From positions 56,836,528 through 56,900,527 of the forward strand of contig OY720345.1 in the NCBI GenBank assembly GCA_963082975.1: a stretch of DNA of 64,000 bases, read 5' to 3'. Both the position numbers and the translations under genes were made by a program. Under the pieces are notes generated by a model. The model worked only from the letters and a program-made list of their open reading frames with translations, had not been told where the DNA came from and made no database searches. Below, one piece after another: positions 14,014 to 64,000 of the stretch. The DNA is from Labia minor. Lineage: Eukaryota > Arthropoda > Insecta > Dermaptera > Spongiphoridae. Numbering within the stretch: the stretch's first letter is position 1; each line of letters starts with the position of its first letter.

Positions 14014-14574
14014 AATGAGTCAAAAGAGTAAACTAACACAATTCAATTTATCTTAATTAAACTAATGAAAATATAGATTTATAAGTATAAAATAATAAAG
14101 AAAACATTATTAGGAACCAGGAAGAGTACAATTGTTATATTACAATCATACAGTATATGCTATTAAGATTTTTTGAGTATAGCATATGTTTTCTCATTTA
14201 AATACACTTTTGAAATGGTTTTTTCTAATCATTCAATGTCAATAAACGATATAAAATATTTTCCTTTCAGTTATAAAATTGTAATCAAGGATTGCTTATT
14301 CTTCAAGCATATTTTAATTTTCTAGTCCCAGAAGTGAACCATTCGAATGGTTTGAAACATGTCAAATGAATCGATCATAAAATAATAATAATAATAATAA
14401 TATATAGTTGTCAAGACTGTCAATCATTCAAAGCTAGAAATGATATTTGCCGATAAGAATTCGTTTCTGAAATTATTTTCCATCTCCCTCTATTCATTTT
14501 CATTAGGGGTGAAAAAGTCCCAAATTATTTGGTAAACGAAATTTGAAGGCAGAACGAATTTCATGGTAAATAAG

Positions 14575-16055
14575 TTGACCTGTGGCCAGGTCCGAACCGA
14601 CCGACGGTTTGAAGTAAATTAATTTCCAGCTACAGAAACAATTTCAAATAATTTTAATATATCTATTAATGTAATAAAAAACAGATATGGATAGAACATA
14701 AATATTTTTAATTTTATTTTATTTATAATATATAGCTGTAGTAGCCGGCGTTACCCGAGGCTGTGACGTCATGAAGGGCTGGGTGACGTCATATAATTTT
14801 AAATTAAGAAAAACATAATGAAGATGATTTTTCCCGAGGATAAAACCAATACATTCGTGGTGATATGTAAAAAAATCTCCTTATGTGAAATTTGGTGCGA
14901 AAATAACCCTTCCCTTCTTATCGTCGATCTCTAATACTACCACTTCCGGTTTCCGGATTTGTACTAAAAGTTGATCAATTCATCCCACTGATGTATTAAG
15001 TAAAGATACCAAATTTCATCAAAATCGGTTGAGCCGTTCAGGCTGTACACATTTATACGGACAGACGGACAGACGGACAGACGGACGGACAGACATCATG
15101 CTAAAAATACTTTTTTCTGTTAAGAAAATGCATGATTTGTGGTGATATATAAAAAATCTCCTCATGTGAAATTTGGTGTGAAAATAACCCTTCCCTTCCT
15201 ATCGTCGATCGCTAATACTACCACTTCCGGTTTCCGGATTTGCACCAAAAGTTGATCAATTCATCCCACTGATGCAGTAAGTAAATATACCAAATTTCAT
15301 CAAAATCGGTTGAGCCGTTCAGGCTGTACACATCTATACGGACGGACGGACGGACGGACCACTTCCGGTTTCCGGATTTGCACCAAAAGTTGATCAATTC
15401 ATCCCACTGATGCATTAAGTAAATATACCAAATTTCATCAAAATCGGTTGAGCCGTTCAGGCTGTACACATCTATACGGACGGACGGACGGACGGACGGA
15501 CCACTTCCGGTTTCCGGATTTGCACCAAAAGTTGATCAATTCATCCCACTGATGCATTAAGTAAATATACCAAATTTCATCAAAATCGGTTGAGCCGTTC
15601 AGGCTGTACACATCTATACGGACGGACGGACGGACGGACGGACCACTTCCGGTTTCCGGATTTGCACCAAAAGTTGATCAATTCATCCCACTGATGCATT
15701 AAGTAAATATACCAAATTTCATCAAAATCGGTTGAGCCGTTCAGGCTGTACACATCTATACGGACGGACGGACGGACGGACGGACCACTTCCGGTTTCCG
15801 GATTTGCACCAAAAGTTGATCAATTCATCCCACTGATGCATTAAGTAAATATACCAAATTTCATCAAAATCCGTTGAGCCGTTCAGGCTGTACACATCTA
15901 TACGGACGGACGGACGGACGGACGGACAGACATCATTCTAAAAATACTTTTTTCTGATAAGAAAATGCATGATTCGTGGAGATATGTAAAAATCTCCACA
16001 TGTGAAATTTGGTGTGAAAACAATACCTCCCTTACTATCGTCGGTCGGTAAAAAT
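14575..16055 (+). mobile_element. Family A element (A2), expanded to ~1.5 kb
   Basis: Has intact family A ends: TTGACC plus the stem-loop at 14575, and GTCGGTCGGTAAAAA ending at about 16055. It is more than twice the usual length because part of the interior is repeated. The core plus GACG tract occurs once at 14940-15100 and then five more times in tandem at 15221-15926. The block beginning near 14865 (GTGGTGATATGTAAAAAAAT) also recurs near 15140. The near-identity of the tandem units indicates recent expansion. Confidence 0.9.
15221..15926 (+). repeat. Minisatellite: five 142-bp units from the family A core
   Basis: Units begin CCACTTCCGGTTTCCGG at 15221, 15359, 15501, 15643 and 15785. The spacing is 138, 142, 142 and 142 bp; the short first unit lacks exactly one GACG tetramer. 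Apart from scattered single substitutions the units are identical. Each ends in a (GGAC)n tract that runs directly into the next CCACTTCC, suggesting slippage or unequal exchange initiated in the tetranucleotide tract. A short minus-strand open frame across two units is a by-product of the repeat and not a gene. Confidence 0.95.
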
Positions 16056-34231: not shown

Positions 34232-36051
34232 TTACATTTTATAGTTTTGCATTGTATGATATCGTTCAAAACATTCCCCAATATGTAATCCTGGTTTTAG
34301 AGTACATGTATTGCAGATATATCTTGTTTCATGTTATCCTCCTTTGACTTTTCGGTCAGAACATACTAAACAATCCTTTTTCTTTACTTCATTTTTACGC
34401 AAAATATGCAATTTGCCGTTTAGTCGTTCTTCCTTGTCTGACGTTGATGGTCTACCTGAAATTTTTGATCCCTTTCGGTAATTTGCTGTCAGTCCATCTA
34501 CTATTTCTCGAACAAACTTTAAATGCGTCATTGGTCGTTTATTTTGGCGATTTTGAGTTATTTTATATAGTAAATATGCATTCACACTACATAATTCAAG
34601 TCCCCAAAAAAATAATTTCCGCCACCATTTCAATGATTTTCTCATAAAACAATATGACGCTGAATATGAGACGGCTCGATCTACGCCTCCCATATATTTA
34701 TTGTAATTAACAATTACTATTGGCTTATCTATAACTTGGATATTACCTCCACGTACTCTTCTAGTTATTGGTTGAGTACCTGAAACGTCCCAGCTGCTAA
34801 GTATAGTGACGACACGTTTATCTTTTCATACCAACAATAGCAAATTTTCTGATCTGCAGGCAAATGTATTGTTTTGAGAAAACTTTGGTTTTTTTATTGA
34901 ATATGGTATAAACTTTCTATTATTTTGTATAGTTCCTGTTGTATATATATTTAGCTTTAGCAGTTCTTGTGCAAGTGGTAAGCTTGTGTAGTACCTATCC
35001 GTATAAATATGGTATCCTTTACTACCAGGATTGCTATCCAATAAGTCTTGGCACAATTTTAGTGCTATTCTTGTACTTATGAGAAGATCAGGTCGTGGTA
35101 AATCTTCTGAAGACAAGCTTCCATAATAGGGTAAAATTGAATATACATACCCTGTATTGGCATCTGCGAGTACATATATTCTTATTCCCCACTTGGTAGG
35201 TTTATTTGGATTATATGTCAGAAAACATATTTTCCCTTTGAATCCCACCACTGACTCATCAACTGAGATTTCTCTTGACGGAACAAAATGTTTTTTGAAT
35301 TTTTTATTTAAAAATTCTAAATAATGGCTAACTTTATGTGTTCGGGCTCTAAGACTTTGGTTATTTGGATTATTCTTATATAAGTGAAACATCCAAAATA
35401 TTTGCATAAATCTTTCTCTTCTAAATATACTACCAAAGAAAGGAATTTTTGAGTTGAAATTTTGGGACCAATATTCTTGCAGATTACTAACAGTAATTGT
35501 GCCCATATTTAGGATAACTCCAATAAATGCTGTAATTTCTTCTACGGTAACATCAACCCACGTATGCCACGTGGACCGTTTGGACAGATTTTTTTTTCTA
35601 TTTTATTTCGAGCATAAATATTTGTCTCTTCTACTATTTTTTCGATAAGTTCATCAGAAAAAAAAAGTTTAAAAAAATCTGTAGGTTTTGTGCAGTTATC
35701 TGGGATTTGTGGGCCTTCAGATTTTTGGCCGGAAGTAAAATCGATCCTATATGGCACATTGTCTTGAAGAGTGACGTCCACCCATGGCCCATAGTTGTCT
35801 GTCCTTTTAGTGGTATACTCATCTTCACTGTTGCTTGAACTCGTTGGTAAAGGCACTGTTCTTCTTTTTTTATCAACTACGATATCACTATCTGTGCTAA
35901 TATCAATTTCCTATTCTTCTTCTTCAAAACTTTCCGTGTCACTATTACTAGAGGAATTTATTTCTTCATGGCCATACGAGTCCAAATAAAATTCGTCATC
36001 ACTACTTTCCAATTCATTTATAATTTCTTTTTGTAAATGTCGTTTGGGCAT
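34232..36051 (-). pseudogene. piggyBac transposase, inactivated
   Basis: Reads from ATG at 36051 (MPKRHLQKEI) to a stop at 34232, about 600 codons, the normal family size. An acidic, serine-rich N-terminus (about 1-50) precedes the DDE_Tnp_1_7 domain. Catalytic aspartates are visible at 35260 (ISVDESVVGFKGK), 34999 (YTDRYYTS) and 34681 (MGGVDRA). The YSASYCFMRKSLKWWRKLFF block follows, and a C-terminal cysteine-rich zinc-binding tail (KKDCLVCSDRK, CNTC, CFERYH) closes it. Breaks: in-frame stops at about 35912, 34827 and 34335, and one frameshift in an A-run at about 35590. The TGA at 34827 sits where a tryptophan codon would fit. All three catalytic aspartates are kept, so decay appears recent. 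Confidence 0.93.
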
Positions 36052-36260: not shown

Positions 36261-36500
36261 TTTTAAAATAATTAAATTATTTTATAGATTATAAAATAAA
36301 AATTATTGTATTAACATTAAAAATATTGAAATAAAAAATAATATTTAGTTTGATTTAATAAATAAAAATATTATAAACATTTTTAGTGGGAATGGGAATT
36401 TCTAGGGGAGGAAGGGAGGTCAGATAAGCAACAACTTTTATTCCAAATGTTCGTCCTCCCTAGCTGTGACGTCATCCATAAGAAGATGTAAAGAAAACAG

Positions 36501-36635
36501 TAAAACATATAATGTCGCCTATTTGGCGACATACGAGTGCAACGGTAAAACATATAATGTCGCCTAGTTGGCGACGTACGAGTGCAACGGTAAAAATATA
36601 ATGTCGCCTAGTTGGCGACATACGAGTGCAAAGGG
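36501..36635 (-). repeat. Three 45-bp terminal repeats of piggyBac, each with a palindrome
   Basis: Units at 36501-36545, 36546-36590 and 36591-36635, the last ending exactly at the element boundary. Each contains TGTCGCC-TAGTT-GGCGACA (a stem-loop, with minor changes) followed by TACGAGTGCAA. The inner part of the terminal inverted repeat is therefore present three times. The units are nearly identical. Confidence 0.93.
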
Positions 36636-45504: not shown

Positions 45505-46144
45505 TTTTTTACCGACCGACGATAGTAAGGGAGGTATTGTTTTCACACCAAATTTCACATGTGGAGATTTTTACATATCTCCACGAATCATGCATTTTCT
45601 AAACAGAAAAAAGTATTTTTAGCATGATGTCTGTCCGTCTGTCCGTCCGTCCGTCTGTCCGTCCGTATAGATGTGTACAGCCTGAACGGCTCAACCGATT
45701 TTGATGAAATTTGGTATATTTACTTAATGCATCAGTGGGATGAATTGATCAACTTTTGGTGCAATTCCGGAAACCGGAAGTGGTAGTATTAGCGATCGAC
45801 GATAGGAAGGAAATGGTTATTTTCACACCAAAGGAGATTTTTTTATATATCACCACGAATCATGCACTTTGTATTGGTTTTATCCTCGAGAAAAATCATA
45901 TTTATTAGTTTTTTCTTGATTTAAAATTATATGACGTCATCCAGCCATTCATGACGTCACAGCCTGGTCTTGCATATATATTATAAATAAAATAAAATTA
46001 AAAATGTTTATATTTATTATTTATGTATGCCTATCTGTTTTTTATTACATTAATAGATATATGAAAATTATTTGAAATTGTTTCTGTAGCTGGAAATTAA
46101 TTTATTTCAAACCGTCGGTCGGTTCGGACCTGGCCACAGGTCAA
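45505..46144 (-). mobile_element. Family A element (A5), near full length
   Basis: Left end TTTTTTACCGACCGACGATA; right end with GACCTGGCCACAGGTCAA. It has the tetranucleotide tract at 45632-45666, the complete core, and TGACGTCA twice (45931 and 45951 areas). It lacks about 20 bp of the second GTGAAATTTGG block that A4 has (around 45830). Confidence 0.9.
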
Positions 46145-46823
46145 CTTATTTTAACTTTGTTTTGTTATTATTAAATATTGAAACAAAATAAAAAAATTAT
46201 TACTACGATTTGAATAACGTTAATAATTTTATATTCTAAGAAGAGTTTTATGCCGCCAGCAGTATATGATGCCGGGAATGGTTATAGTATATATATATAA
46301 TATATTAATAATATAAAATATATAAAATATGACACAATATCATTTAACAATTCATTCTGAGATTTAGATATAAAAATTTTATTATTGATATAATGTGTAT
46401 ATATAAATATATAAATATATATATATATATATAAAGATTGTATAGTATCTTATTTTTTTAATTTCCATGGAGGGTAGGAGATGAGCCAGAGGAATCCCTC
46501 TTTATCGGTTCTCTCGGTTCATCGAGTGAAACACTCATCCCCTCTATAACAGACCCTAGGACTGCAACAGCTGGAACCCGCTAAGTGAGACGTCATCGTC
46601 AGTCTTCAATCTCTTCCCTCCTACTCCTTTGAATTGTCAAAGAAACCACCCCTTGTGTGCTAAACTTATCTCCCTAGTTTTGACTACAAACCATATAGTC
46701 ATAACTATGTAAAATTAAAATTAGTCTAATATAATATTATCCTGTCCTTTTTTTATCTTTTTAATTAATTTTTATCAATAATATATAATCAAATTATTAT
46801 TATAATTTTAAATTTTGAAATAA
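46145..46823. other. Spacer with an unidentified complex block at 46460-46690
   Basis: 46460-46690 has near-balanced composition (GAGGGTAGGAGATGAGCC, TCGGTTCTCTCGGTTCATCG) and looks single-copy within the window. No coding frame, tRNA boxes or inverted ends were recognised. The flanks are (TA)n-rich. Confidence 0.5.
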
Positions 46824-47328
46824 TTTTTTCCGACAGACGAAGGGAAGGGAAGGTATTGTTTTCACACCAAATTTCACATGTGGAGATTTTTACATATCTC
46901 CACGAATCATGCATTTTGAAAAAAGTATTTTTAGCATGATATCTGTCCATCCATCCGTTCGTCTGTCCATTGTGCCAATATTGACGTATATAGCTTGAAC
47001 AGTTCAACGGATTTTGATAAGATATATTTACTTAATGTATCAGTAGCATGAATTTACCACTTTTGGTGTATATCCAGAAACCAGAAGTGGTAGTTTACAA
47101 AGTATTAATCTTATATTCATTATCGGAAATTTTTCACTTAAAATATAGTAGTAATTAATAGTTGAGTAATTAAACTAAAAATAAAAACCAAGATAATATA
47201 ATTTAGTCATTTTAATTCAAGTTTTAAAAATATTTTTTGGATACTTTATATATATATATACGTATATATATAATTGTAAATTAATTTATTTCAAATCGTC
47301 GGTCGCTTCTGTGCCTGGCAACAGCTCA
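46824..47328 (-). mobile_element. Family A' element (A6)
   Basis: Inverted copy of the variant at 29720-30205: CCGACAGACGAAGGGAAGG at the left; GTCGGTCGCTTCTGTGCC and ACAGCTC at the right. It shares ACCAGAAGTGGTAGTTTACAA and lacks the TGACGTCA block. It abuts element A7 directly. Confidence 0.85.
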
Positions 47329-47708
47329 TTTTTACCGACCGACGATAGTAAGGGAGGTATTGTTTTCACACCAAATTTAACTGATATTTTAAATGTAAAA
47401 AAAAAACAGATATAGATATAATATAGATATTTTTAATTTTATTTTATTTATAATATATAAGGGAAAAATCATATTTATTAGTTTTTTCTTGATTTAAAAT
47501 TATATGAAGTCATCCAGTCATTCATGACGTCACAGCCTGGTCTTGCATATATATTATAAATAAAATAAAATTAAAAATATTTATGTTATATCCATATCTG
47601 TTTTTAATTACATTAATAGATATATTAAAATTATTTGAAATTGTTTCTGTAGCTGGAAATTAATTTACTTCAAACCGTCGGTCGGTTCGGACCTGGCCAC
47701 AGGCCAAC
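47329..47708 (-). mobile_element. Family A element (A7), rearranged
   Basis: Begins TTTTTACCGACCGACGATAG immediately after the end of A6 and ends with GACCTGGCCACAGGCCAA. The core and tetranucleotide tract are missing. The segment at 47396-47455 (AAAACAGATATAGATAT and ATTTTATTTATAATATA) is in the opposite orientation to the rest, so the interior was lost and replaced by an inverted piece of the same family. One TGACGTCA remains near 47525. Confidence 0.82.
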
Positions 47709-48207
47709 TTATTTAATCTTCTGGTGAATTATTAAAGATAGAATAGTAACGATTTATTCCTTCTATAGTCTATAAATCTATATATAAAATCAAAGGGAAG
47801 GAAACAACTAAAAATACTATATCATTTTACTAGTACCTCTCCTCCTGTCAAAGCACACACAAAGATCTATATTTCTCCCTAAATGACTATTCTATACATT
47901 CCGTGAAACTTCATAAACAATAATAATAATAATAAAATATTTAATTAACAAAATTATTAATCGTATTAATAATCAAATCAGTTAAAAAGAAAAAATATTA
48001 AAATTTGAATTTACTTGATATATCATTAATAAATAATTTAAGAGTTGAAAGACAAATTTTACAGAAGAATATGAATGAATTTATATTTCTTATCTTAAAG
48101 CACACATGATAATGTACACGTATATACTTGATTGATAATATCAATATATTAGGAAGATTCATAAATGTTTTTTTTTTAAATTCTTTCATTTTAATTTAAT
48201 TCTAATA
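47709..48207. other. AT-rich spacer, nothing recognised
   Basis: A/T-rich, no features supported. Confidence 0.6.
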
Positions 48208-48330
48208 TTTTTTACTATCTCGTAAGAGATAGTATTGCGATCACGAAAATTTTCGATGTCGAGATTTTGATGTTTTTATACGTTTTGAAGGTTCCTGAAT
48301 CATTTTCACTAAGGTTGAGAAAAATGTCTG

Positions 48331-48363
<33 letters not shown>

Positions 48364-48824
48364 CCAAGATTACGCAAAAACGGTTTTAGCTAGAATGATG
48401 AAATTTGGTACATGAGCATTATTCAAAATTCGTAGTTTTCTATCAACTTTTGAGAAATGTAGCTCAACCGGAAAAGGGTCATTACCTACAACGTTTTGAT
48501 TTTTTTTCCTCTAAAGTGACCTTAAAAATAAAGATATATGTTTGATAATTTTTCATATGATTAATAATTGTATAAATTGTATAAACTGCTATATATAGAA
48601 TTTCAGCTTGATTGATTCGCTGAAATTACCAGAATTAATTTTTTAACACTGCAATTCTCACGCGCCAACATGTGACGTGGTGCCATCAATAAAAAGCCAA
48701 ACATGCGCTGGTTTAATATTTATTATTTATAATTTATAATTAATTAAATTTAATTTAAATATAATATATTATGTTATTTAATCCAATTCAAATTGCGAGA
48801 TAGTCGAGTGGAGACACTCCAGCT
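48208..48824 (-). mobile_element. Family B element (B2), full length
   Basis: On the minus strand it starts AGCTGGAGTGTCTCCACTC (stem-loop GAGTG-TCTC-CACTC), then GACTATCTCGC. At the other end GAGATAGTAAAAAA restores that motif in inverted orientation; the 3' end also folds as ACTATCTC-TTAC-GAGATAGT. The interior has the core (AAAAGTTGATAGAAAAC, ACCAAATTTCATCATTC) and an (AC)n tract. No coding capacity. Confidence 0.9.
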
Positions 48825-49507
48825 TATTTAAAATAATTCAGACCCTTATTTTAAAATATATCAGATCAAAACAGCTCCAATTAAAATAATTATTAAATTA
48901 TGTCTAAAAGAATGAAAAACCCAAATACAAGGCTCATTCTAAGACAATGAGAACATTCAACATTATGCATTTAAACAAACATTTTACAATTAATAGAAAG
49001 TGCATAAAAAACATTAAATCCCAAATCGAAACTCAATAATCATGGAAGTATCGAATATTAAATATCTAAAAAATGTAAATATCGATAAATGCTTCCAATT
49101 GCTTATTCCTCAAGAACTCATTGTTAAAAATTGTAAGATACTCACAAAAATAACAGTGACAGAAGATGATACGACATTAAGAAATTCCATGATCCCAATA
49201 TAATCGAGAAAGATCTAAGAGTGGGGAGGGGGAAATCAAAGGAAGATATTATTGACGTCTACCTATTAAATTTACTGAAGCTTATCGCAGTTGCTAGAAA
49301 AGTCTACATTGATTAGAGGTTAAAAATTAAATAAAATTTGATTTTTGATGAGTTAAGAACTTTCACTTACAGTAAATAAATGGGCATATCCTCTCAATTT
49401 TCATTCTAATGACTTTATCATTATTGCTTATATTTTTAATAAAAAAAAATAATCTTCTACCTATTTTACTGGAGCTCGATGAATTCAAATTTTAATTATT
49501 TTTTAAC
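48825..49507. other. AT-rich spacer, nothing recognised
   Basis: A/T-rich, slightly more complex around 49100-49300, nothing recognisable. Confidence 0.55.
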
Positions 49508-49521
49508 AGCTTTAGAATTAT

Positions 49522-49656
49522 TATTCTTATTTGCGGATAGACACTGAGGATCAGAGCTTTAAAGAGTAATAATTAATTATTGAATTTCTCTAGGCCTGAA
49601 CTCAAGTCTTTAGTGTGGTAGACTGTCGTGCTAACCACTAAGCCGCTGAAGAGTCT
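49522..49656 (-). mobile_element. tRNA-derived SINE, family S1, with 14-bp TSD
   Basis: Inverted copy of the S1 SINE: the minus strand reads GCTTAGTGGTTAGCACGACA (A box), GACTTGAGTTCAGGCC (B box), the body and the AAATAAG tail. It is flanked by an exact 14-bp duplication AGCTTTAGAATTAT at 49508-49521 and 49657-49670. The long perfect duplication fixes both ends of the family and shows L1-like target-primed insertion. Confidence 0.93.
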
Positions 49657-49670
49657 AGCTTTAGAATTAT

Positions 49671-51149
49671 ATAATAACAATTTTTTTTTATTAAATTTCT
49701 ATTAATAAGTAAATAACATGAATTTTAAAATATATCGTTTCAATGATACCATCGATAACTCGTAAAAGTATCCCTCTCACTCTCTCTCTCTCTCTCTTTT
49801 TGCAATGAAAATATGAATTTTTATTAAGCCGACATCTTTAGTTCGAAAGAATGAGACTTTATATGGAGGTTGGTTGGTGTTGGAAACTTAACTCAGAGAA
49901 AGATTACTTGATTATCCGATATTTTTTTGAATTCGTTGAATAATTAAGAAAAAATAAAATAAAAAAAAGAAGAATTTATAATCCTTTAAAGTAGAAGAAT
50001 CTTCAACGGAAAGCCTCCCTTATTGCGCTTGTAAAAGTTTTTTAAAAGATGAAACGTTGCCCCTGCGATCTTTCCATTTTAGCATAATAGAGTTGGTAAT
50101 TATAGTTTTCTTTCTAAATTTTATCTTTATTACTAGTGGATATGGAAATAACTTTTAATATTAATATTAGCATAAATAATCATTGGAATGCATCGCGAGG
50201 CTGTATCTCGATTGACATGGCGATCAGGCATAAATAAATTTCATTTGCATTAAAATTAATATTTCAATTGTTTATTACCTTATAATAAATTTTTATCGAA
50301 TTCTATAACAAAAGAGTATATTATTTGTATTTGTATCCAATCTGTTTAACTTCAGATGGCCTCGGTGTATGTTTAGAAATACCACCAACGGATTCATTAA
50401 CAGAAATGAGTATTAAATTGAACCTGACTGAATTGTTATTTAAATGCCTAATAAAATTTTTAATGATTTTACACTTAATTAGTATTTCAAGTATGTAAAG
50501 AATGTGAATTTCGGGTGACAGACAATCGGAATCCATTTTTATTCTTCATGTTTTTTGGAATGGAAACATAAACGAAACCAGAATGAAAAACATTGGTCAT
50601 CAAGTAAAACGAAATTCATTGATTCTACTAGAAAAGGGAATTCACGAGGATTTTCAAAAAGCGTTTATGGCTGAATTTAACAAGTCTTCAGCTTCCACTT
50701 TGCAGCTGGAAATCGAGATGGTTTAAACACAAGACGTGTATGTAAATTTACTCGAAACATCTCTAGAATATTTTAATTGGAATTCTAACTATTTGATTAA
50801 TTACTTTAAAGTCTAGAATATAAAAGTGATTTTATTTTTATAGAGCTATTTAGCTTCTCATCATCTTTAATAGAAGACACGGATGTCTAACTCTAGACAA
50901 CTAAAAGACCACATACCACTACTAAATAATTATAGGCAGAAAAAAACGCACTTAACTCTCATTTTAATCACTATATCATTAATGTTGTATCGAATAAAGT
51001 AGATTTGGATTTTTTTAAGCGTATTAACAGGGGCGAGTCCTCTGAATTCCGAAGTGAATAAGGTATGCTCATGAATCATGGATATATGAAATACGCTTCA
51101 AAAAATGTTTTATATGCCAAGTAAAAACGAAACACTTGCTCGTAATGTT
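49671..51149. other. AT-rich spacer with a (TC)n tract
   Basis: Contains (TC)n at 49773-49798. A 71-codon minus-strand frame at 50321-50536 ends in ISVNESVGGISKH and IGYKYK, faintly like the first-aspartate block of a piggyBac transposase, but too weak to call. Otherwise A/T-rich. Confidence 0.5.
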
Positions 51150-51545
51150 TATATACAATAGATAAACACTCAAGAGAGGCAGTTGGAACGCAAGCGGGTG
51201 TAGGAGGGGGGAGGGGAGAGGGAGGAGGAGGGCGAGGATGAAGTCGAAGGGCGAGAATCCCGAGGAAGGGAAAGCCGAAGAGGAAAGCTGGAGCAGGATA
51301 AAGAGAGGTGTAGATAAAATGTGGGCAGGGTAGGCTCGTGTTCTTGGAAAATGTCGTACGCTCCCAATTATAGTAAAACGGCTGTGTGGAGATTCTGGGA
51401 CGGAATTTCAAGCTGAACAAGAGCGCGCGCGCGAGTCGCCGTGCCATGAATCTTAAGCTGCAAAACGGAGCGGTCGCGGACGATGAAGAGGCCATCGTCA
51501 GCCCGTCCATCTGTCCCTCCGCTCTTCTTATGCTAATCGGTTAAT
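51150..51545. other. GC-rich island 7
   Basis: A strongly purine-rich plus strand at 51195-51310 (GGAGGGGGGAGGGGAGAGGG) is followed by a CpG-rich part with GAGCGCGCGCGCGAGTCGCC at about 51420, and by ATGCTAATCGGTTAAT, a POU/homeodomain-like octamer area, at about 51530. The minus strand is open for 144 codons, but the product is a P/S/L-rich low-complexity peptide without family resemblance. Likely regulatory or promoter-proximal DNA. Confidence 0.45.
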
Positions 51546-51966
51546 CCTTTTCCCTTTGGATTGACCTCACAAACTAGCATCATGCACAAATTTGACTTAC
51601 CAAATACTACTACTACTATTACTCCTTTTACTAGTACTGTATTATTTATTTCCTCTTTTATATATCATCTTCATCCCCACACTTCAATTATTGGAAAACA
51701 ATTAATAATCAATAAATACATATATTAAAACAAAATAAATTAATCAATTAAGTAAAGCGATTTACTCCACATATAAACAAACTGAGAAAGTGAAGCCCAA
51801 AGTTCACAGTTTGTATTCACTTCAGGGTTATTGATTAGAGAAAAATGTATATTGCATTGTAATATTAAGATTATCAAGTTCAATATTCACTTTATATGTT
51901 GCAGATTACATTACATTACTAGCAAAATTTTAAAAATTGGAGTTAATCGGTTTGGCTTCTGAGTGG

Positions 51967-52009
<43 letters not shown>

Positions 52010-52214
52010 TTATATTTATTTGTTCACAATCTTATAGTAATTTTAATTATAAGAAATAAATTTATAAATATTAATTAATATATTTATTATTTTAATTAAT
52101 GAAATATGAAAATATAATATGAAGTATTTTCAAAATTACAGGATAAAATTTTTTTTTAGTTTAATTATAGAATTAAATTTTTATCTATATATTTTAAATA
52201 AAAATAATCTGCTA
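51546..52214. other. AT-rich spacer with (TA)n
   Basis: (TA)n of about 18 units at 51970-52005; otherwise nothing recognised. Confidence 0.6.
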
Positions 52215-52550
52215 TTTTTACCGATCGACGATAGTAGGGGAGGTATTGTTTTCACACCAAATTTCACATGTGGAGATTTTTACATATCACCACGAATCAT
52301 GCACTTTCTATTGGTTTTACCCTCGAGAAAAATCATCTTTATTAGTTTTTTCTTAATTTAAAATTATATGACGTCATCCAGCCATTCATGAGGCGTCACA
52401 GCCTGGTCTTACATATATATATTATAAATAAAATAAAATTAAAAATATTTATGTTATATAAATATCTGTTTTTTATTACATTAATAGATATATTAACATT
52501 ATTTGAAATTGTTTCTGTAGCTGGAAATTAATTTACTTTAAACCGTCGGT
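52215..52550 (-). mobile_element. Family A element (A8), core-deleted and lacking the 5' stem-loop
   Basis: Left end TTTTACCGATCGACGATAG, then the GTGGAGATTTTTACATATC block joined directly to CCACGAATCATGCACTTTC and the TGACGTCA region. The core and tetranucleotide tract are gone. The right end stops at AAACCGTCGGTAGGTTC, so the stem-loop is missing. About half the normal length. Confidence 0.85.
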
Positions 52551-55060
52551 AGGTTCAATTTCAGATTGAAAAAATTATTTTAATTATTTTTTGATGAATA
52601 AAGAAATAGCAACAAAGTATTTTATACTATCTTAGTTTGTGATAAGGTGAATGATAAAAGTGCTTTTGTTTTTCAAAAAGGAATATGAAATTAATTATAA
52701 ATATTTTGCTTATTGAAAATGATTAATTATTGTTGAGTACGTAAAAGAAAATTATTTTAAGTTAACGATGTTTTTTATATCTATCGAAGTTAAAAAGTTA
52801 ATATTACATGGGTTTTATCAATTAACTTGTAGTGATATTTTATAAGTTTTTGGTATATTCAAATTTTTGCTGAGTCAATAATTTTCAAATTTTAATTATT
52901 TTAAAATAATGTTTGGAAGATTAAATCAAATCAAGATCATATCCATTACCATCAGTTGTTTGTAAATTTTTCATTTAACTAATAGCAAGTATATGGATAA
53001 CGAAAAAAAATGGTATTTTATTGTAACTTTGTATTGTGTGAATATATTCTAAGCAATGTAACATTAAAATATAAAATTAAAATATTTTTTTTCATTATAA
53101 CATATAATGGATAAAAATATAATAAAATATTATATATTGCATTGAATTAACACTGAATTAGCAAGACTTGTATATATATTCATTACATTTGAAATATAAA
53201 TTAAAATATCAAATGAGATTTTTTTTGATTTATCAATTTATACTGAAATCAATATGAAATTTTTCTTTCCTAAATTTATTTTAAAAATTTCTTATAGAAT
53301 TAGAATCTGATATTTATACACTGCTAACAAAAAGATGAAATGATCTTATTTGGCTTATTAAGTCATTTTCTCTTTGTAAACTTTCCAATTTCTTGATACG
53401 AATTTAGATTAGAATTAAAATTATTGATAAGATAAATTTTTATCAATCCCAAAATATACTTTAGCAAATTTCGACAAAAATCAAATATTGACTTTTCTTT
53501 CATATATATATATATAAAACTATTTTTAAATAATATCTAAGTTGAAGAAAAAAAACTTGATAATTAAACACAATTGTTCGTATATTAGAACATTTGTAAA
53601 TTATAGAATAAATTTTATTTTTTTAAATCATTCTTTATACAATATTTAATGAAGATTTGAAAAAAAAATAAGTAAAGGATAAAATGTAAAGATATTTTTT
53701 CTGAAGAAAAATAACTGTGATTGGTGGAGAAAATAAGATGAGGTCACGTGACGTCAAAAAATTATATCAATTGCAAAAAAAAAAGACAAGAGTGTCATAG
53801 TATCATACATGAAAGGTAAATATCTATATTTAAAATAATAAAATAGATAAATAGTTTTATAAATAATGTAGTCAGCCACGTTCAATAAAATTCAATTAAA
53901 TGAGAGGGAAATCACTTTTAAACTCTGACTTTAGTAAAAGCCTAGCAATATTAATAAATTTATCCTTTGATGTTAAAATTGTAATGAAAAAATAAAAATA
54001 AAAAAAAAACGAGAAATTTTAAATCAATTTTTTTTTAGATCTTTTCATTTAAAAATATCAGATTGTGCTAGGTGAATAAGATAACAGTACCTGGAACACT
54101 GAGCTATCGCTCGACCCTTTGAAAAATATTGATATACAATTCTTTAATTATTTATTATAATTATTAAAAGTTACATCATTGCATCAATCTGACTAAAATG
54201 AATAGAACTTGGGGTCCTCAAAATTAATAAATATTATTAATAAATATTAAATGATATTTTAGTGAAAAAATATTAAAAATTATAAAACTATCTAAAAATT
54301 AATTAATAAAACAACAATGATTAAATAAATATAAATTAGTAATTTGATAAAAAATAAACACGAAAATAGATAAAAAAAACATAAAATTTTATAAGAATTC
54401 AGAAAAATTAAACAACAAAACAGATTAAAAAATTTCAAATATTTTAGAGAAAAAAAATAACAATACTTACAATGTTTGCAAGACAAATAAATTACCAAGC
54501 CGTATTAATTTGTTTGTTTTTTTAAAGAGATTAATAAATATATTTTATTAAAATAAATATTTTTCATTTTATTTCGAAATTAAATAATAAATTTTAAAAT
54601 ATTTTCAACATAAAAAAATATGAATACAATATCAATTAAAAAAGAATGACAAGAGGCAAATTTCAATATGGATGTCGACACTTGTGACATCTTTTAAATT
54701 TACTATTTTAAAATAAAAAAATACTAATAAGGTTGATTTTTCTCGAGGCTGAAACTAATTATCTTTATAAATATTATCTATGGTGTGAATTACAAATCTA
54801 TATATATACAATATATATATATGGTAAAAAAAGAATAATACATTAAAGAAATATTTTAATAAAATTAATTTAAATAATATAAATTTTATTTTTTAAAAAT
54901 AAACAATTAGTAAAAAAATCTTTAAATCTCACATGGTTTCATTCAATATATTATTTGTAGTATCTTTCAAATTTAAAATTATTTTATAATATTATATGAA
55001 ATTTAATCCAATATGAATAAATGTACATTCTAGTAAATTATCTTACAAATAGGTAAAATT
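52551..55060. other. 2.5-kb AT-rich spacer
   Basis: A/T-rich. GATAACAGTACCTGGAACAC at about 54078 with the neighbouring GAGCTATCGCTCG could be a tRNA-like remnant, but no box pair is convincing. A 68-codon minus-strand frame at 54292-54498 is low-complexity. Confidence 0.5.
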
Positions 55061-55656
55061 AGCTGGAGTGTCTCCACTCGACTATCTCGCAATTTGAATT
55101 GGATTAAATAACATAATATATTATATTTAAATTAAATTTAATTAATTATAAATTATAAATAATAAATATTAAACCAGCGCATGTTTGGCTTTTTGTTGAT
55201 GGCACCACTTCATGTGTTGGCGCGTGAGATTTGCAGTGTTACAAAATTAATTCTGGTAATTTCAGCGATTCAATCAAGCTGAAATTCTATATATAGCAGT
55301 TTTATACAATTATTAATCATGTGAAAAATTATCAAACATATATCTTTATTTTTACGGTCACTTTAGAGGACAAAAATCAAAACGTTGTAGGTAATGACCC
55401 TCTTCCGGTTGAGCTACATTTCTCAAAAGTTGATAGAAAACTATGAATTTTGAATAATGTCCATGTACCAAATTTCATCATTCTAGCTCAAACCGTGCGT
55501 AATCTTGTCTACATACATACACACACACACACACAGACATTTTTCTCAACCTTAGTGAAAATGATTCAGGAACCTTCAAAACGTATAAAAACATCAAAAT
55601 CTCAACATCGAAAATTTTCGTGATCGCAATACTATCTCTGGCGAGATAGTAAAAAA
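55061..55656 (+). mobile_element. Family B element (B3), full length
   Basis: AGCTGGAGTGTCTCCACTCG at the 5' end, GGCGAGATAGTAAAAAA at the 3' end, with a complete core and an (AC)n tract at about 55512-55532. Very similar to B2 and B6 by eye, so these three are probably recent. Confidence 0.92.
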
Positions 55657-56243
55657 GTTAACAAAAATGGAAAAGGTAGAAACTTTTCTATTATTCCATT
55701 CAGTTGGATTTTATATTATTTTTAAATTAAATTATGTATTTTTATTTATTATTTTTCCATTTTATTATTATTTAACCTCAAAAATCCAATTGGAATTAAT
55801 AAACCAAGGCTGTAGGTTCATATCAACAAATAAACACATAAATTGAAAAATCTCAAGTGCAATATTTTTCAATCCCTTTTAGGTATCGCCTTTTCCTGGA
55901 GTTCACGACGTTTGTTCGCTTTATTTATACTTCTTAAGTGACAAGATATTTCTCCAAGCTCAATGACCTTTTATTCAATAACATAAATACAGAACTTTTA
56001 ATTATAAACCAACATATGATATTATTTCTTCTTTAATAAAAACCTTTTTAAAGTTTTCAATTTAATTATATAAATAATGAATTTTATATAAATTTATGAA
56101 ATTAAATTTTATTATCTATTTAATATATATTCTCATTACTTATTGAATATATTTTAAAATAAAAAAAAAAAATATTTATCTATTTTTCGCTCTTTTACTT
56201 TTATTTAGTATTTTTTTCTAAATATATTTTTTTTTATAAATTA

Positions 56244-56467
56244 TGTCTCCAGTCGACTTTCTTGCAATTTGAATTGGATTAAATAACATATATTATATTT
56301 AAATTAAATTTAATTAATTAAATTTTAAATTAAAATTAATAAATAATATTTATTCAACCAGAGCATGTTTGGCTCTTTGTTGAAGGCACCACGTCACGTG
56401 CTGGCGCGTGATTTGCAGTCGTGATAAAAAATTAATTCCGGAACTTCTGGCGAGATAATAAAAAAAT
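56244..56467 (+). mobile_element. Family B element (B4), internally deleted to 224 bp
   Basis: 5' part from a degenerate stem-loop (TGTCTCCAGTCGACTTTC) through the CCAGAGCATGTTTGGC block to AATTCCGGAACTTCTGG, then directly to the 3' terminal GGCGAGATAATAAAAAA. The core and microsatellite are deleted, leaving both ends. Confidence 0.85.
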
Positions 56468-57034
56468 CAATTAAAATTAATTTTCATTTCTTAGTTCATT
56501 AAAAATTTGATATTTTTAGTGTTCAATGTAATTACAAAAACATTGAAAGAATTTTATTTTTCTAGTTATATAATATAATATAAAAGAACTTCGAATCAAT
56601 CATTGATTAAATGAGTCAGAATTATTTGCCTTTTATGAGCATAGTTTAATTTAATTTTTATATTTTAAATCAAAAATAAATTGATGTCAAGACATTCAAC
56701 GAGCAATTTAGTTGTTGGAATGTATATACGAGTAGAAATATATTTAATTAATGAATATGTTTTGTAATGTATATAAAATTTGTGTTTTATTTTCATTACT
56801 TCTTGGAAAAATTAATTAAATTATATATATATAAGATATAATAGTGTATGTATCAAATTAATAGAGAATAGAAGAAAACCAAAATCAAAATGGGTCATAA
56901 ATAATCTATAAGAATAAGTTAAAAGTTCATTAAATTAATAATCAGAATTATTAAAATATGATAAGTAAAATTTTAAAATATAAAATGGCTGCAATAAAAA
57001 CAGAAGAGATTTAATTGGAAATAAAAAAAAATAA
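56468..57034. other. AT-rich spacer, nothing recognised
   Basis: A/T-rich, no features supported. Confidence 0.6.
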
Positions 57035-57664
57035 GTTGACCTGTGGCCAGGTCCGAACCGACCGACTGTTTGAAATAAATTAATTTCCAGCTACAGAAAC
57101 AATTTCAAATAATTTTAATATATCTATTAATGTAATAAAAAACAGATATGGATACATAAATAATAAATATAAATATTTTTAATTTTATTTTATTTATAAT
57201 ATATATGCAAGACCAGGCTGAGACGTCTTGAATGGCTGGATGACGTCATATAATTTTAAATCAAGAAAAAACTAATAAATATGATTTTTATCGAGGATAA
57301 AACCAATACAAAGTGCATGATTCGTGGTGATATATAAAAAAATCTCCTTTGGTGTGAAAATAACCCTTTCCTTCCTATCTTCAATCGCTAATACTACCAC
57401 TTCCGGTTTCCGGAATTGCACCAAAAGTTGATCAATTCATCCCACTGATGCATTAAGTAAATATACCAAATTTCATCAAAATCGGTTGAGCCGTTCAGGC
57501 TGTACACATCTATACGGACGGACAGACGGACGGACGGACAGACATCATGCTAAAAATACTTTTTTCTGTTTAGAAAATGCATGATTCGTGGAGATATGTA
57601 AAAATCTCCACATGTGAAATTTGGTGTGAAAACAATACCTCCCTTACTATCGTCGGTCGGTAAA
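57035..57664 (+). mobile_element. Family A element (A9), near full length
   Basis: AAGTTGACCTGTGGCCAGGTC at the 5' end with GAACCGACCGACTG, core at 57400-57500, GACG tract at 57516-57541, and CGTCGGTCGGTAAAT at the 3' end. One TGACGTCA palindrome is intact; the other has changed to GAGACGTCTTG. It shares the deletion near CCTTTGGTGTG seen in A5, placing both in one subgroup. Confidence 0.9.
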
Positions 57665-58263
57665 TATTTAAAGAGATTAAAGAAAAAAACGAATAAATAA
57701 AAATAATTTTTATTTTAATTTATAAATTTGAATTTCAGTAATGTACTGTATATCAGAGACTTTAACAATATAATCAGTCAAAATTAATTTAGATGAAATG
57801 GCAGAAGAGATTGAAAAGTAATAAAGTAATCATTAATATATGAAATACCTGATGTATTAATTAAAAATAGTGGGAAAAGCCTTTTGTAGAATGTTTACAT
57901 ATATTTATTATTTCAATTTGCTTTAAGAAATTATCTCAAGAGAATGGGAGGAAACAATTATTATTCCTCTTATTAAAAAAAGATAACAGATTTGAATGAC
58001 AATAATTACAGAATAATTTCTTAGAGAAGATTATTAATTTATTATTTTATTAAAATTAAAACAATTTTTTAAGAAAATATCAAGAATAATTTTGAAAAGC
58101 ATTTTTTGGAATTTCTTGTGGAATTTTTTAATTAAAATTATGTCATTAATCTTCCAAATCCTGTGCCAAATTTAATTACACTTTATAACTATAAATAATA
58201 GTATAGATTTGAAAACCTACTAGACACATATACAAACATATCTAAATATATTATTAAAAAAAA
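57665..58263. other. AT-rich spacer, nothing recognised
   Basis: A/T-rich, no features supported. Confidence 0.6.
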
Positions 58264-58905
58264 TCTAGAGTGTCTCCACTCGACTATCTCGCAATTTGAA
58301 TTGGATTAAATAACATATATTATATTTCAATTAAATTTAATTAATAATACATTATAAATTAAAATTAATAAATAATATTTATTAAACCAGCGAGTGTTTG
58401 GCTCTTTGATGAAGTCACCAAGTCACATGCTGGCGCGTGAATGCCAGTCAACGTGTTAAAAAATTAATACCGGTACTTTCAGCGATTCAATATATAGCAT
58501 ATATATATATATATATAGCAGTTTTATACAATTTTTAATCATGTGAAAAACAATCAAACATTTATCTTCATTTTTACGGTCTGTATAGGTTTAGAGGAAA
58601 AAAAAATGAAAACGTGGTTCTTCTGGACGACCTACCTTTCTCAAATTGATAGAAAACTACGAATTTTGAATAATGCCCGTGTACCAAATTTCATAATTCT
58701 AGCTCCAACCCTTTTTGCTTGATTTTGTCTACATACATACACACACAAACACATATATATATATATATATATATAGATAGATAGATAGATAGACATTTTT
58801 CTCAACATTAGTGAAAATGACTCAGGGACCATCAAAACGTATAAAAACATCAAAATCTCGACATCGAAAATTTTCATGATCGCAATACTATCTCTGGTGA
58901 TAGTA
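58264..58905 (+). mobile_element. Family B element (B5), decayed 3' end
   Basis: 5' TAGAGTGTCTCCACTCGAC stem-loop present, then the family body with CCAGCGAGTGTTTGGC, the core (AATTGATAGAAAACTACG, ACCAAATTTCATAATTC) and AC, TA and GATA microsatellites at 58738-58793. The 3' end reads CTCTGGTGATAGTAAT, a degenerate form of the terminal motif. A 78-codon minus-strand frame across it is fortuitous. Confidence 0.87.
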
Positions 58906-59411
58906 ATAATTTAAAAATGTAGATTTATAAAATAATATATTTAATTTGTTTATTTAACTGATTTAATCAAGAAAATGAATAAACTATATTATAAATCTCT
59001 CAAAAATAAAATTACTTTTATTATTATATTGTAGTAAAATTAAAACAAATTAAAAATATATATTGAAAGTTTAAATTATTAAGATTCAATTACCATTTGC
59101 TATTTAAATTTATAATGTTTTTAAATGCACATGTAAATTATTATTCATATATAAATAAATTTAATCATATAAAAACTTAACATTATAATTAAATTAATAT
59201 TATTAATAAACAATTGTATCAAAATAGAAATTATGTTCCATGTGTGCTCATTCCCAATCGTTTTTTATGTTTAATGGGATGTTATGATTTTTTTGTCTCC
59301 AAAAACATACAAACTATTTTCCAGAGTGTTTTTAATATAATATTAATTGATATATATGTATATATATATATTTATAATATATATATGTGTGAATTTATAA
59401 ATACACCTAAA

Positions 59412-59442
<31 letters not shown>

Positions 59443-60079
59443 CATTTTTATTCTTATTTTAATTTAAAATGGAATTAAAACTTTTACCGAATAAATTTAT
59501 GTAGTATAATTATATTTTATTTTTATTTTTTTAATATATTTAACTAGGAATCGCAGTAAACAAGTCTTCCTAGTTATTAGCAAGTTTCACGTTTGGTTTA
59601 AAAAAACAAAAACAAATATTATTAATTAAAATAAAACAGAAATAAATAAAGTGAATGTGAGGAGGAGTGATTATATTTCTTTGAAATTAAAAAAATAACT
59701 CAATCATATTGAATTAAGAATGATTTATAGAAAGATAAATAGAACAAGTGTTTGTACCAATGTTATTATATTTAAATATAATATTTTAATACGAATTAAC
59801 TTGTTTAGAATATTCATATATTATGTGAACATAAATAAAAATTAAAATCATGTTAATATTAGTTTGTACCTAACTATGAACAAATAAAAAAAATATAATT
59901 TAATAATACTATTTAAATAAGACAAAATCTACTTACTTATATTTTCAAATTTATTATTATTTTTCCGCTATATTATCGTAACCTAATTTCCCTATATTCG
60001 CCAATAATATAATATAACTAAAGATAATAAATAAATATGGTTGATATTAGACCTTCCCCAAGACAATATATATATATAT
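58906..60079. other. AT-rich spacer with (ATT)n
   Basis: (ATT)n at 59411-59441 and a (TA)n tract at 60065-60079 at the edge of the next element. An 82-codon frame at 59214-59462 ends in poly-tyrosine from the microsatellite and is not a gene. Confidence 0.6.
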
Positions 60080-60914
60080 CAGTGATTCTCAACCTTTTTT
60101 TACTGCGGCACCCTTTTAACGGTTTAAAAATTTGGCGCTAACAAAGAAAAAGATAAGTGTAAAAGTTATTTACTTACCTATAATAGACTGAGTAATATAG
60201 TTTATGATAATAATTAGGGCAGCCTGATCGCAAAAATATTTTACCTTTTTTACTATCTCGTAAGAGATAGTATTGCGATCACGAAAATTTTCGATGTTGA
60301 GATTTTGATGGTTTTATAAGTTTTAAAGGTTCCTGAATCATTTTCACTAAGGTTGAGAAAAATGTCTGTGTGTGTGTGTGTATGTATGTAACCAAGATTA
60401 CGCAAAAACGGTTTGAGCTAGAATGATGAAATTTGGTACATGAGCATTATTCAAAATTCGTAGTTTTTTATCAACTTTTGAGAAATGTAGCTCAACCGGA
60501 AGAGGGTCATTACTTACAACGTTTTGATTTTTTTTCCTCTAAAGTGACCGTAAAAATAAAGATATATGTTTGATAATTTTTCACATGATTAATAATTGTA
60601 TAAAACTGCTATATATAGAATTTCAGCTTGATTGATTTGCTGAAATTACCAGAATTAATTTTGTAACACTGCAAATCTCACGCGCCAACACATGACGTGG
60701 TGCCATCAACAAAAAGCCAAACATGCGCTGGTTTAATATTTATTATTTATAATTTATAATTAATTAAATTTAATTTAAATATAATATATTATGTTATTTA
60801 ATCCAATTCAAATTGCGAGATAGAGTCGAGTGGAGACACTCCAGCTAATTTTACATACATATAAAATCAATAAGTACTTTTTCTTAATTTAAACACAGTG
60901 GCTGAGAATCACTG
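60080..60914 (+). mobile_element. hAT-type element interrupted by family B
   Basis: Left end CAGTGATTCTCAACC; right end reverse-complemented CAGTGATTCTCAGCC, a near-perfect 15-bp inverted repeat. The flanks ATATATAT and ATATATAG fit an 8-bp hAT target duplication with one mismatch, though the TA-rich context weakens this. Without the inserted B6 the element would be about 234 bp. No coding capacity. Confidence 0.85.
60246..60846 (-). mobile_element. Family B element (B6), full length, nested in a hAT element
   Basis: Right end GACACTCCAGCT with the stem-loop; left end TTTTTTACTATCTCGTAAGAG. The core and a (GT)n tract are at 60366-60382. Nearly the same as B2 throughout. One 2-bp insertion (GATAGAGTCGAG) distinguishes its 5' inverted motif. 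Confidence 0.92.
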
Positions 60915-63263: not shown

Positions 63264-63745
63264 GGGTGTGCCAAAATTAACGCAAGATTTGAATTAAATA
63301 GAAAACACAGTTTTTAGTCTTTTGATTGTGATTTTTTTAATGATTCATAAAGTACATAGGATAGGGTTATTTATGGAATAACACATCGGGCAAATGGCCT
63401 CCGCGGCTTTGCATACACATACGCACTCGTTTGTCGAAATTTTCCATGACCGTTCTGCATAAATGTGGCTGAATTTCGTTGATGCAACTTTGAATCTCCT
63501 CCTTTAATGCACGCGTAGTTGTGGGCTTATTGACGTATACCTGTGATTTTAGATATCCCCATAAAAAGAAATCTAATGGTGTTAAATCACACGATCTAGG
63601 GGGCCAATTCTGATCACCGAAACGAGAGAGTACACGACCTGGAAATGTCTCATGCAGTAATTGAAGTGTTTCACGGGCTGTATGGCATGTGGCACCGTCT
63701 TGTTGAAACCACATATTTATGTGACGGTGCCACATGCCATACAGC
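63264..63745 (-). mobile_element. Mariner-like element, 3' half, left arm of a palindrome
   Basis: The left end, GGGTGTGCCAAAATTAACGC at 63264, looks like a mariner terminal repeat just past the transposase stop. The element runs right until it joins family B sequence at 63746. Its last 97 bp are repeated in perfect inverted orientation at 63904-64000. It represents a third mariner lineage in the window. Confidence 0.8.
63367..63735 (-). pseudogene. Mariner-like transposase C-terminal half
   Basis: 122 codons. WFQQDGATCHTARETLQ carries the second catalytic aspartate, and WPPRSCDLTPLDFFLWGYLK the third, with 36 residues between them, two more than the 34 of classical DD34D mariners. The C-terminus (CMQSRGGHLPDV and a final FHK) is intact. 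The N-terminal DNA-binding domain and the first aspartate are missing because the sequence turns back on itself upstream of codon 1. The apparent start MWHRH is formed by the palindrome and is not the natural start. Confidence 0.85.
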
Positions 63746-64000
63746 TGGTTTAATAAATATTATTTATTAATTTTAATTTATAATTAATAATTAATTAAAT
63801 TTAATTTAAATATATAATATATGTGTTAATTAATCCAATTCAAATTTGCAGGAGATAGTCGAGTGGAGACACTCCAGATTTTTAATGGTGACAATTAATG
63901 TATGCTGTATGGCATGTGGCACCGTCACATAAATATGTGGTTTCAACAAGACGGTGCCACATGCCATACAGCCCGTGAAACACTTCAATTACTGCATGAG
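63649..64000. repeat. Perfect inverted repeat with 97-bp arms, open at the window edge
   Basis: 63649-63745 and 63904-64000 are exact reverse complements, with a 158-bp spacer. The right arm continues past the window end, so the true arm may be longer. Within each arm GCTGTATGGCATGTGGCACC and its complement also pair locally (about 23 bp around a ~23-bp loop), giving hairpins within a hairpin. Confidence 0.97.
63746..63877 (-). mobile_element. Family B 5' end fragment (B7) in the palindrome spacer
   Basis: TGGTTTAATAAATATTATT through AATCCAATTCAAATTTGC to GTCGAGTGGAGACACTCCAG matches the 5' end of family B in minus orientation, including the stem-loop. The 3' four-fifths are missing. The junction with mariner sequence falls at CAGC/TGGTTT, where intact copies read GCGC/TGGTTT. 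Confidence 0.88.

What the first reader, a model, noticed from the sequence alone, without database searches (positions are those of the whole stretch)
48208..60846. Families A and B share an end architecture and a ~100-bp core although the rest differs
Seen: both families have a 5' stem-loop (A: GACCTG-TGGC-CAGGTC; B: GAGTG-TCTC-CACTC), immediately followed by a ~10-bp motif (A: ACCGACCGACG; B: ACTATCTCGC) whose inverted copy closes the 3' end before an A tail. Both also share, in the same order, CTTCCGGTT, AAAAGTTGAT, ACCAAATTTCATCA and a CCGT block leading into a microsatellite (GACG in A, AC in B). Outside these blocks the sequences do not align by eye. Known: Helentron-derived HINE/DINE-1 elements combine a subterminal inverted motif, a terminal stem-loop and an internal short tandem repeat. 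Inference: A and B are two families mobilised by one replicase type, and the core is a functional cis-element rather than coding sequence, since the equivalent reading frame in B has stops.
Basis: partly seen in the sequence, partly recalled or inferred. Interest (0 to 1): 0.75.

Follow-up and report, generated by a model that had tools for sequence, protein, structure and literature searches.

The report
Helentron-derived repeats with their autonomous parent
Two very abundant non-coding repeat families in this genome look like mobile DNA of the rolling-circle "Helentron" kind, and a long parent element that carries both ends of one of them was found elsewhere in the same genome.

Summary
Correctly oriented, each starts with a subterminal inverted repeat directly after a T-run and ends with its inverted copy, a stem-loop and an AT-rich tail. 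This is the published HINE/DINE-1 (non-autonomous Helentron) plan. A and B share more than isolated blocks: their 5' ~275 bp align well above shuffled controls, while the rest aligns at best marginally. A ~12.2-kb element on contig C1 has a 2181-codon open frame for a Rep (GSPHEH)-PIF1 protein with weak endonuclease and Ulp1-protease matches at its C-terminus. It begins with B's 5' part, core included (B 1-486, then a second piece 277-513), and ends with B's last 39 bp exactly. B is therefore best read as an internal-deletion derivative of a Helentron, and the core lies in that Helentron's 5' leader, upstream of the frame. No autonomous element with A's ends was found, so A's mobiliser is inferred. 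Exact 3' ends occur 11,064 (A) and 8,904 (B) times; together the families cover about 8% of a 200-kb sample. The kind is known; a cis-function of the core is plausible but untested.

The parts
57029..57661 (-). Family A full-length copy (5' end at 57661; stem-loop 57038-57053; 3' subTIR 57057-57067 with one mismatch; 5' subTIR 57651-57661)
57400..57543 (-). A core: boxes TGATGAAATTTGGTA 57464-57478, ATCAACTTTT 57423-57432, AACCGGAAG 57400-57408, and the GTCY microsatellite (about 57514-57543)
52217..52556 (+). Family A copy, internally deleted and 3' truncated
48214..48824 (+). Family B full-length copy (5' palindromic subTIR ACTATCTCGTAAGAGATAGT 48214-48233; 3' subTIR 48795-48804; stem-loop 48806-48819)
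48396..48451 (+). B core boxes 1 and 2 in the 48214 copy (total span 56 bp)
55061..55650 (-). Family B full-length copy (5' subTIR 55641-55650; 3' subTIR 55081-55090; stem-loop 55066-55079; core boxes 55402-55480)
56244..56507 (-). Matched stretch of a family B copy with a large internal deletion (76% to B; its 5' end lies near 56460 by eye)
58260..58905 (-). Family B near full-length, diverged copy (ends approximate; 3' subTIR 58283-58292; stem-loop 58268-58281); not among the 38 rows extracted as full length
60252..60846 (+). Family B full-length copy (stem-loop 60828-60841; core boxes 60424-60438, 60470-60479, 60494-60502)
14568..16049 (-). Family A copy whose core plus microsatellite is amplified into a 142-bp tandem array (15220-15927, 5.0 copies, 98% matches)
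46829..47714 (+). Two A-type copies head to tail: a diverged one followed directly by an internally deleted one whose 5' subTIR is at 47334-47344
45511..46151 (+). Family A full-length copy with a paralogous empty site at L043:2371-2479

Best explanation
A and B are Helentron-associated interspersed elements (HINEs): non-coding rolling-circle transposons. Shown by sequence: a ~12.2-kb element (C1:47862611-47874777, minus strand) carries B's 5' part with the core and B's exact 3' end around a Rep-PIF1 open frame, so B reads as its internal-deletion derivative; A has the same plan and a homologous 5' ~275 bp. Inferred mechanism: the Helentron's Rep nicks at the 5' end next to the subTIR, PIF1 unwinds one strand, and the 3' subTIR plus stem-loop terminates the rolling circle. 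The single-stranded copy is placed into a T-run without target duplication, perhaps helped by the endonuclease. The shared 5' segment, with two boxes 31 bp apart, is inferred to be a retained part of the replication start region or leader.
For: Autonomous element: 2181-codon frame without stops; PF14214 E 1.3e-23 and PF05970 E 1.9e-31; PF14529 E 2.9e-4 and Peptidase_C48 E 0.003, both below Pfam's cut-offs. Rep motif EFQMRGSPHEH; S between G and P is the published Helentron signature. Endonuclease motifs (GDFN, HKP and others) align by eye with three other PIF1 proteins, two of which also carry the Rep domain and one of which is named Lutzomyia longipalpis. B 1-486 at 90.3% preceded by TTTTT, B 277-513 at 93.2% and B 558-596 at 100% flank the frame. 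A second, stop-bearing copy of the same element is 99% identical over the last 242 bp and ends in the same B terminus. T-run of at least 5 before 12 of 14 A ends, of at least 4 before 30 of 37 B ends with flank. Empty sites for one A and two B copies. Exact 3' ends 11,064 and 8,904, backward controls 0. Two-box core pattern 27,858, control 0.
Against: No autonomous element with A's termini was found: the 3' flanks read for three other Helentron relatives (L056 4.0 kb, L057 2.5 kb, L058 2.2 kb) show no A or B end, and of 100 listed places (of 665) with an A-type 3' subTIR but non-A bases upstream, none lies within 20 kb of a Rep match, compared by eye; this listing covers C1 to 94.7 Mb only. 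The endonuclease and protease matches are below curated cut-offs. Only one autonomous copy with both B ends was read; it has a duplicated B piece and a nested, truncated A copy in its leader. 5' homology of A and B may be plain descent without any function of the core. 7 of 37 B copies have fewer than 4 T before the 5' end.
Confidence: 0.9

Rival explanations
1. A has its own, separate Helentron (diverged, lost, or not recognised here); A and B are independent families whose 5' similarity is inherited from an old common Helentron, and the core has no special function.
For: Several diverged relatives of the B-type protein exist (52% at C2:66.56M, 51% at C1:55.79M, 57-60% at C1:44.70M). Similarity extends through the whole 5' part, not only the core. 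The published scheme treats elements with different subTIRs as different families.
Against: The three relatives whose 3' flanks I read carry no A end. No other match (22 of 1833 candidates scored) covers the whole query in one stop-free frame. A copies are young (median 2.85% from consensus, 12 copies), so a partner should have been active recently.
Confidence: 0.5
2. A and B are TIR transposon derivatives (MITEs) of a cut-and-paste transposase.
For: Short inverted repeats, no coding capacity and high copy number; DINE-1 was once classed so.
Against: At the 3' end the repeat is subterminal with a stem-loop outside it, no target duplication is seen at the empty sites examined, and B's ends flank a Rep-PIF1 frame.
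Confidence: 0.02
3. The shared core is a recent gene-conversion tract or a chance match.
For: Both families are dense, and the boxes are exact while the spacer differs.
Against: The spacer between the two boxes differs in sequence but not in length (99 of 100 listed places span 56 bp), similarity continues upstream (1 of 1000 shuffles), the longest shared word exceeds 500 shuffles, and the core sits at the same place in the autonomous element.
Confidence: 0.03
4. A and B are SINE/LINE-type retroelements with an A tail.
Against: The A-run is the T-run next to the 5' end, no duplication at the empty sites examined, Rep-PIF1 parent of B.
Confidence: 0.01

Closest known systems
HINE / Helentron (Thomas, Vadnagara and Pritham 2014, PMC4067079)
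   Same: subTIRs near both ends, palindromic 5' subTIR (B), 3' palindrome after the 3' subTIR, T-rich target without duplication, Rep-PIF1-EN parent, non-autonomous copies as deletions of it, clusters (sections read).
   Different: Here the B-type parent protein ends in a Ulp1-protease-like stretch, and A is a partial dimer of its own 5' block. An RPA gene was not sought.
DINE-1 / INE-1 of Drosophila (Yang and Barbash 2008, PMC2374699)
   Same: Block A divided by a (CCGT)n(CTGT)n microsatellite, ~90-bp conserved core, central tandem repeats, 3' subTIR and hairpin, TT target. A has a GTCY microsatellite and, in one window copy, a tandemly amplified core.
   Different: subTIR sequences differ (Table 1 of the paper). 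The core boxes named here lie on the 3' side of the microsatellite. B has a (GT)n instead of GTCY. Homology to the DINE-1 core was not tested.
Cg_HINE of oyster (PMC7492417)
   Same: 5' subTIR, complementary repeat, GTCY-type microsatellite in several elements, satellite-like central repeats, 3' subTIR and palindrome (passages).
   Different: In the oyster the authors could not relate an autonomous element to their HINEs; here one is assigned to B.
Canonical Helitron
   Same: Rep-PIF1 protein; rolling-circle replication inferred.
   Different: No 5'-TC / CTRR-3' termini (definition recalled), T-run target, Rep motif of the Helentron type.

Membership tests
Helentron/HINE | Subterminal inverted repeats at both ends | tested here: met
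   A 11 bp, B 9-10 bp
Helentron/HINE | Stem-loop downstream of the 3' subTIR | tested here: met
   28 of 38 B rows share the identical last 22 nt, 8 of 14 A rows the identical last 28 nt; the other rows differ by one or more bases
Helentron/HINE | T-rich target, no target-site duplication | tested here: met
   T-runs; empty sites for one A and two B copies, judged by eye in T-runs where single bases are ambiguous; a fourth, weaker A case is consistent but poorly aligned on the left
Helentron/HINE | Autonomous Rep-helicase element sharing both ends (B) | tested here: met
   one element read in full
Helentron/HINE | Autonomous Rep-helicase element sharing both ends (A) | tested here: inconclusive
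   not found; few flanks could be read
Helentron/HINE | C-terminal AP-type endonuclease in the parent protein | tested here: met
   PF14529 E 2.9e-4, below the curated cut-off; motifs conserved in an alignment with three homologues
Helentron/HINE | Helentron-type Rep motif 2 (S between G and P) | tested here: met
   GSPHEH; criterion. The protein of L051, without endonuclease in its frame, also has GSPH
DINE-1 | GTCY microsatellite in block A (family A) | tested here: met
DINE-1 | GTCY microsatellite in block A (family B) | tested here: not met
   B carries (GT)n instead
DINE-1 | The ~90-bp DINE-1 core sequence | not tested
   No DINE-1 sequence was compared
Canonical Helitron | 5'-TC and 3'-CTRR termini (recalled definition) | tested here: not met
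   A starts ACCGACC, B starts ACTATCT; 3' ends read CAACTTATTT and CAGCT + mostly AATTT
MITE / TIR transposon | Target-site duplication | tested here: not met

The most novel reading that the evidence does not exclude
The conserved 5' segment, with two boxes held 31 bp apart while the spacer diverges, is a binding platform for the Helentron's own protein. The one B-type Helentron cross-mobilises the A family, which differs in subTIR and stem-loop, so template choice depends on this internal platform more than on the terminal repeats.
Probability: 0.15. Interest if true: 0.6.

Novelty: new member of a known kind. Interest (0 to 1): 0.37.

Why it matters
It assigns two very abundant repeats of this genome to a mechanism. 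For B it supplies a parent open frame with derivatives that share both ends, a usable pair for testing Helentron replication. It also shows the conserved core in the parent's non-coding 5' leader, which makes the question of what such cores do in DINE/HINE elements testable.

Tried and rejected
Chance and gene conversion were weighed and rejected. A wider spread of the core was sought in public collections: three core patterns gave nothing in viral contigs; the single hit of a 21-mer in genome contigs (L009) lies in ordinary bacterial-looking sequence by eye and was judged a chance match. In the paper library the 20-nt core string gave 0 papers and six 14-nt strings gave one unrelated paper, seen as a listing. 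These searches cover only that library. The A DNA search returned nothing; the tool warns that it skips very common words, and one search shows that A is not rare. A weak third core-like site (L047:6110-6216, E 1.4e-4) was not resolved. The search for an A-type parent failed. One search is a weak test: its 665 matches (backward control 9) can include A copies with small indels, their sequences were not printed, only 100 places were listed, and a parent sharing more of A's 3' end would be missed.

Counts and drops: consensus A used 12 of 14 extracted rows and B 35 of 38 (length filters). One A row (window 15213) starts inside the array copy, so the 14 include one nested row. B loci came largely from the best-scoring hits (40 scored of 1291 candidates), so B divergence leans young. 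The genome sample is 20 stretches of 10 kb at 15-Mb steps on C1, C2 and C4 only. Of the many joined-flank matches I aligned four. I cite three; the fourth (A at L037:7449 against L043, 79%) is weaker. In the B case at L033 the host bases next to the 5' end do not form a T-run although the empty site does.
Full report
What was checked. The window lies in an unnamed 604-Mb eukaryote genome at C2:56836528-56900527. I located A and B copies, extracted full-length ones, built consensus sequences (A 632 bp from 12 of 14 rows, B 596 bp from 35 of 38), compared the families against shuffles, looked for empty sites, counted exact ends genome-wide, and searched the genome for an autonomous element.

Anatomy. 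In element orientation A reads T-run, ACCGACCGACG ... GTCY microsatellite, core ... CGTCGGTCGGT, TCG, GACCTGGCCACAGGTC, AACTTATTT. B reads T-run, ACTATCTCGTAAGAGATAGT (or ...CGCCAGAGATAGT) ... (GT)n microsatellite, core ... GCGAGATAGT, C, GAGTGGAGACACTC, CAGCT, then AATTT in 22 of the 37 rows tallied and other AT-rich letters in the rest. A T-run of five or more precedes 12 of 14 A ends, and one of four or more precedes 30 of 37 B ends with flank. Joined flanks of one A copy (window 45511) and two B copies (L023, L033) match paralogous sites that lack the element and have a T-run there, without a visible duplication; single T and A letters at the junction are ambiguous.

How A and B are related. 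Upstream of the microsatellite the consensus alignment scores 25.0 (shuffles 12.6 +/- 2.3, 1 of 1000 reach it). The core scores 27.0 (12.2 +/- 2.2, 0 of 1000). The remainder scores 41.0 (30.0 +/- 4.2, 12 of 1000). So the 5' ~275 bp is homologous throughout, with the longest exact runs in the core: TGATGAAATTTGGTA, ATCAACTTTT, AACCGGAA. The two-box pattern, which fixes both boxes and allows a spacer of 28-44, occurs 27,858 times, control 0. Of the 100 places listed, 99 span 56 bp (spacer 31) and one 58; the 65 printed sequences read as A- or B-type by eye. This is inheritance in two families, so the equal spacing counts as one comparison, not as thousands.

Inner history of A. Positions about 275-399 of the A consensus repeat its first ~112 bp, with the start of the subTIR altered. 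A therefore looks like a head-to-tail dimer that lost the first unit's 3' part. One window copy (14568-16049) has the core and microsatellite unit in 5.0 tandem copies of 142 bp. Both facts fit the tandem and central-repeat behaviour described for HINEs (passages of PMC7492417; section 15 of PMC4067079).

Abundance and age. The exact 38-nt A end occurs 11,064 times and the exact 35-nt B end 8,904 times; the backward controls are 0. In 20 stretches of 10 kb, A covers 8,062 bp and B 8,461 bp of 200,000. Median divergence from consensus is 2.85% (A) and 2.2% (B; B sampling leans young).

The parent of B. The Rep family search gave 104 matches, several with long open frames. The frame at C1:47863894-47870436 (minus) has 2181 codons stop to stop, with Rep (GSPHEH), PIF1, DUF6570, a weak endonuclease match and a weak Ulp1-protease match. 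The protein search with its C-terminal part returned 3 proteins of 3580 candidates. All three carry PIF1, two also Rep, and one is named from Lutzomyia longipalpis; the endonuclease motifs align in all three. Reading outward, the element begins with TTTTT|ACTATCTCGCCAGAGATAGT and B 1-486 at 90.3%, followed by a second partial piece, B 277-513 at 93.2%. It ends with B 558-596 at 100%, followed by AATTTT. The stretch shared with B, core included, lies in the leader, ending about 3.6 kb before the open frame begins. A 3'-truncated A copy (A 1-524, 89.5%) sits inside that leader. A second copy at C1:44.69M is 99% identical over the last 242 bp and ends in the same terminus, but its reading frame carries stops and its 5' B part was not seen in the piece read.

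What was not found. No parent with A ends. The 3' flanks of three diverged relatives showed none. Among the 100 listed of 665 places with an A-type 3' subTIR and non-A bases upstream, all on C1 up to 94.7 Mb, none lies within 20 kb of a Rep match, compared by eye.

Known or new. Papers seen: PMC4067079 (abstract, section 4 parts 1-2 of 3, section 15), PMC2374699 (section 6 part 1 of 2, and passages), PMC7492417 (passages), PMC4344730 (abstract and outline only). The anatomy, the deletion-derivative relation, the T-rich target, the microsatellite and the tandem central repeats have precedents there. What is added is two families in this genome, the assignment of B to a parent, and the observation that A and B share the whole 5' segment. 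I did not search whether this organism's elements are already named. The mechanism beyond the sequence facts is inferred from that literature.

Verdict.

Noticed in passing
window 34334-35910 (-): PiggyBac-like transposase pieces in three frames (163, 258 and 122 aa; name from recall, not searched).
   Followed up: no
window 24881-25282 (+) and 63367-63759 (-): Mariner-like transposase fragments by appearance (recalled, not searched); a B 3' fragment (about 63763-63877) follows the second.
   Followed up: partly
window 36496-36631: Three 45-bp tandem units that contain an inverted repeat (GTCGCC TAGTT GGCGAC).
   Followed up: no
L031 (C1:20000001-20010000): The whole 10 kb has very high match depth (maximum 63), probably satellite DNA.
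   Followed up: no
L041:7168-9051, L047:2926-4686, L049:2703-4586: Open frames of 628, 587 and 628 aa with identical first 110 residues (the part printed), zinc-finger and transposase-like by appearance, in 3 of 20 sampled stretches.
   Followed up: no
L047:6110-6216: A third core-like site with a GTCT-rich microsatellite (nhmmer E 1.4e-4), possibly another HINE family.
   Followed up: partly
L020, L028, L035: Copies whose 3' end runs into the middle of another copy of the same family, as end bypass or template switching might give.
   Followed up: partly
L051 (C9:34493300-34502300): A second Rep-PIF1 type: 1785 aa, GSPHIH, no endonuclease family reported for it, no A or B ends in 9 kb.
   Followed up: partly
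L050:1995-3419 (-): A Ulp1-protease-like stretch behind the endonuclease of the B-type Helentron protein (below cut-off); aligned by eye in P0001 and P0002.
   Followed up: partly
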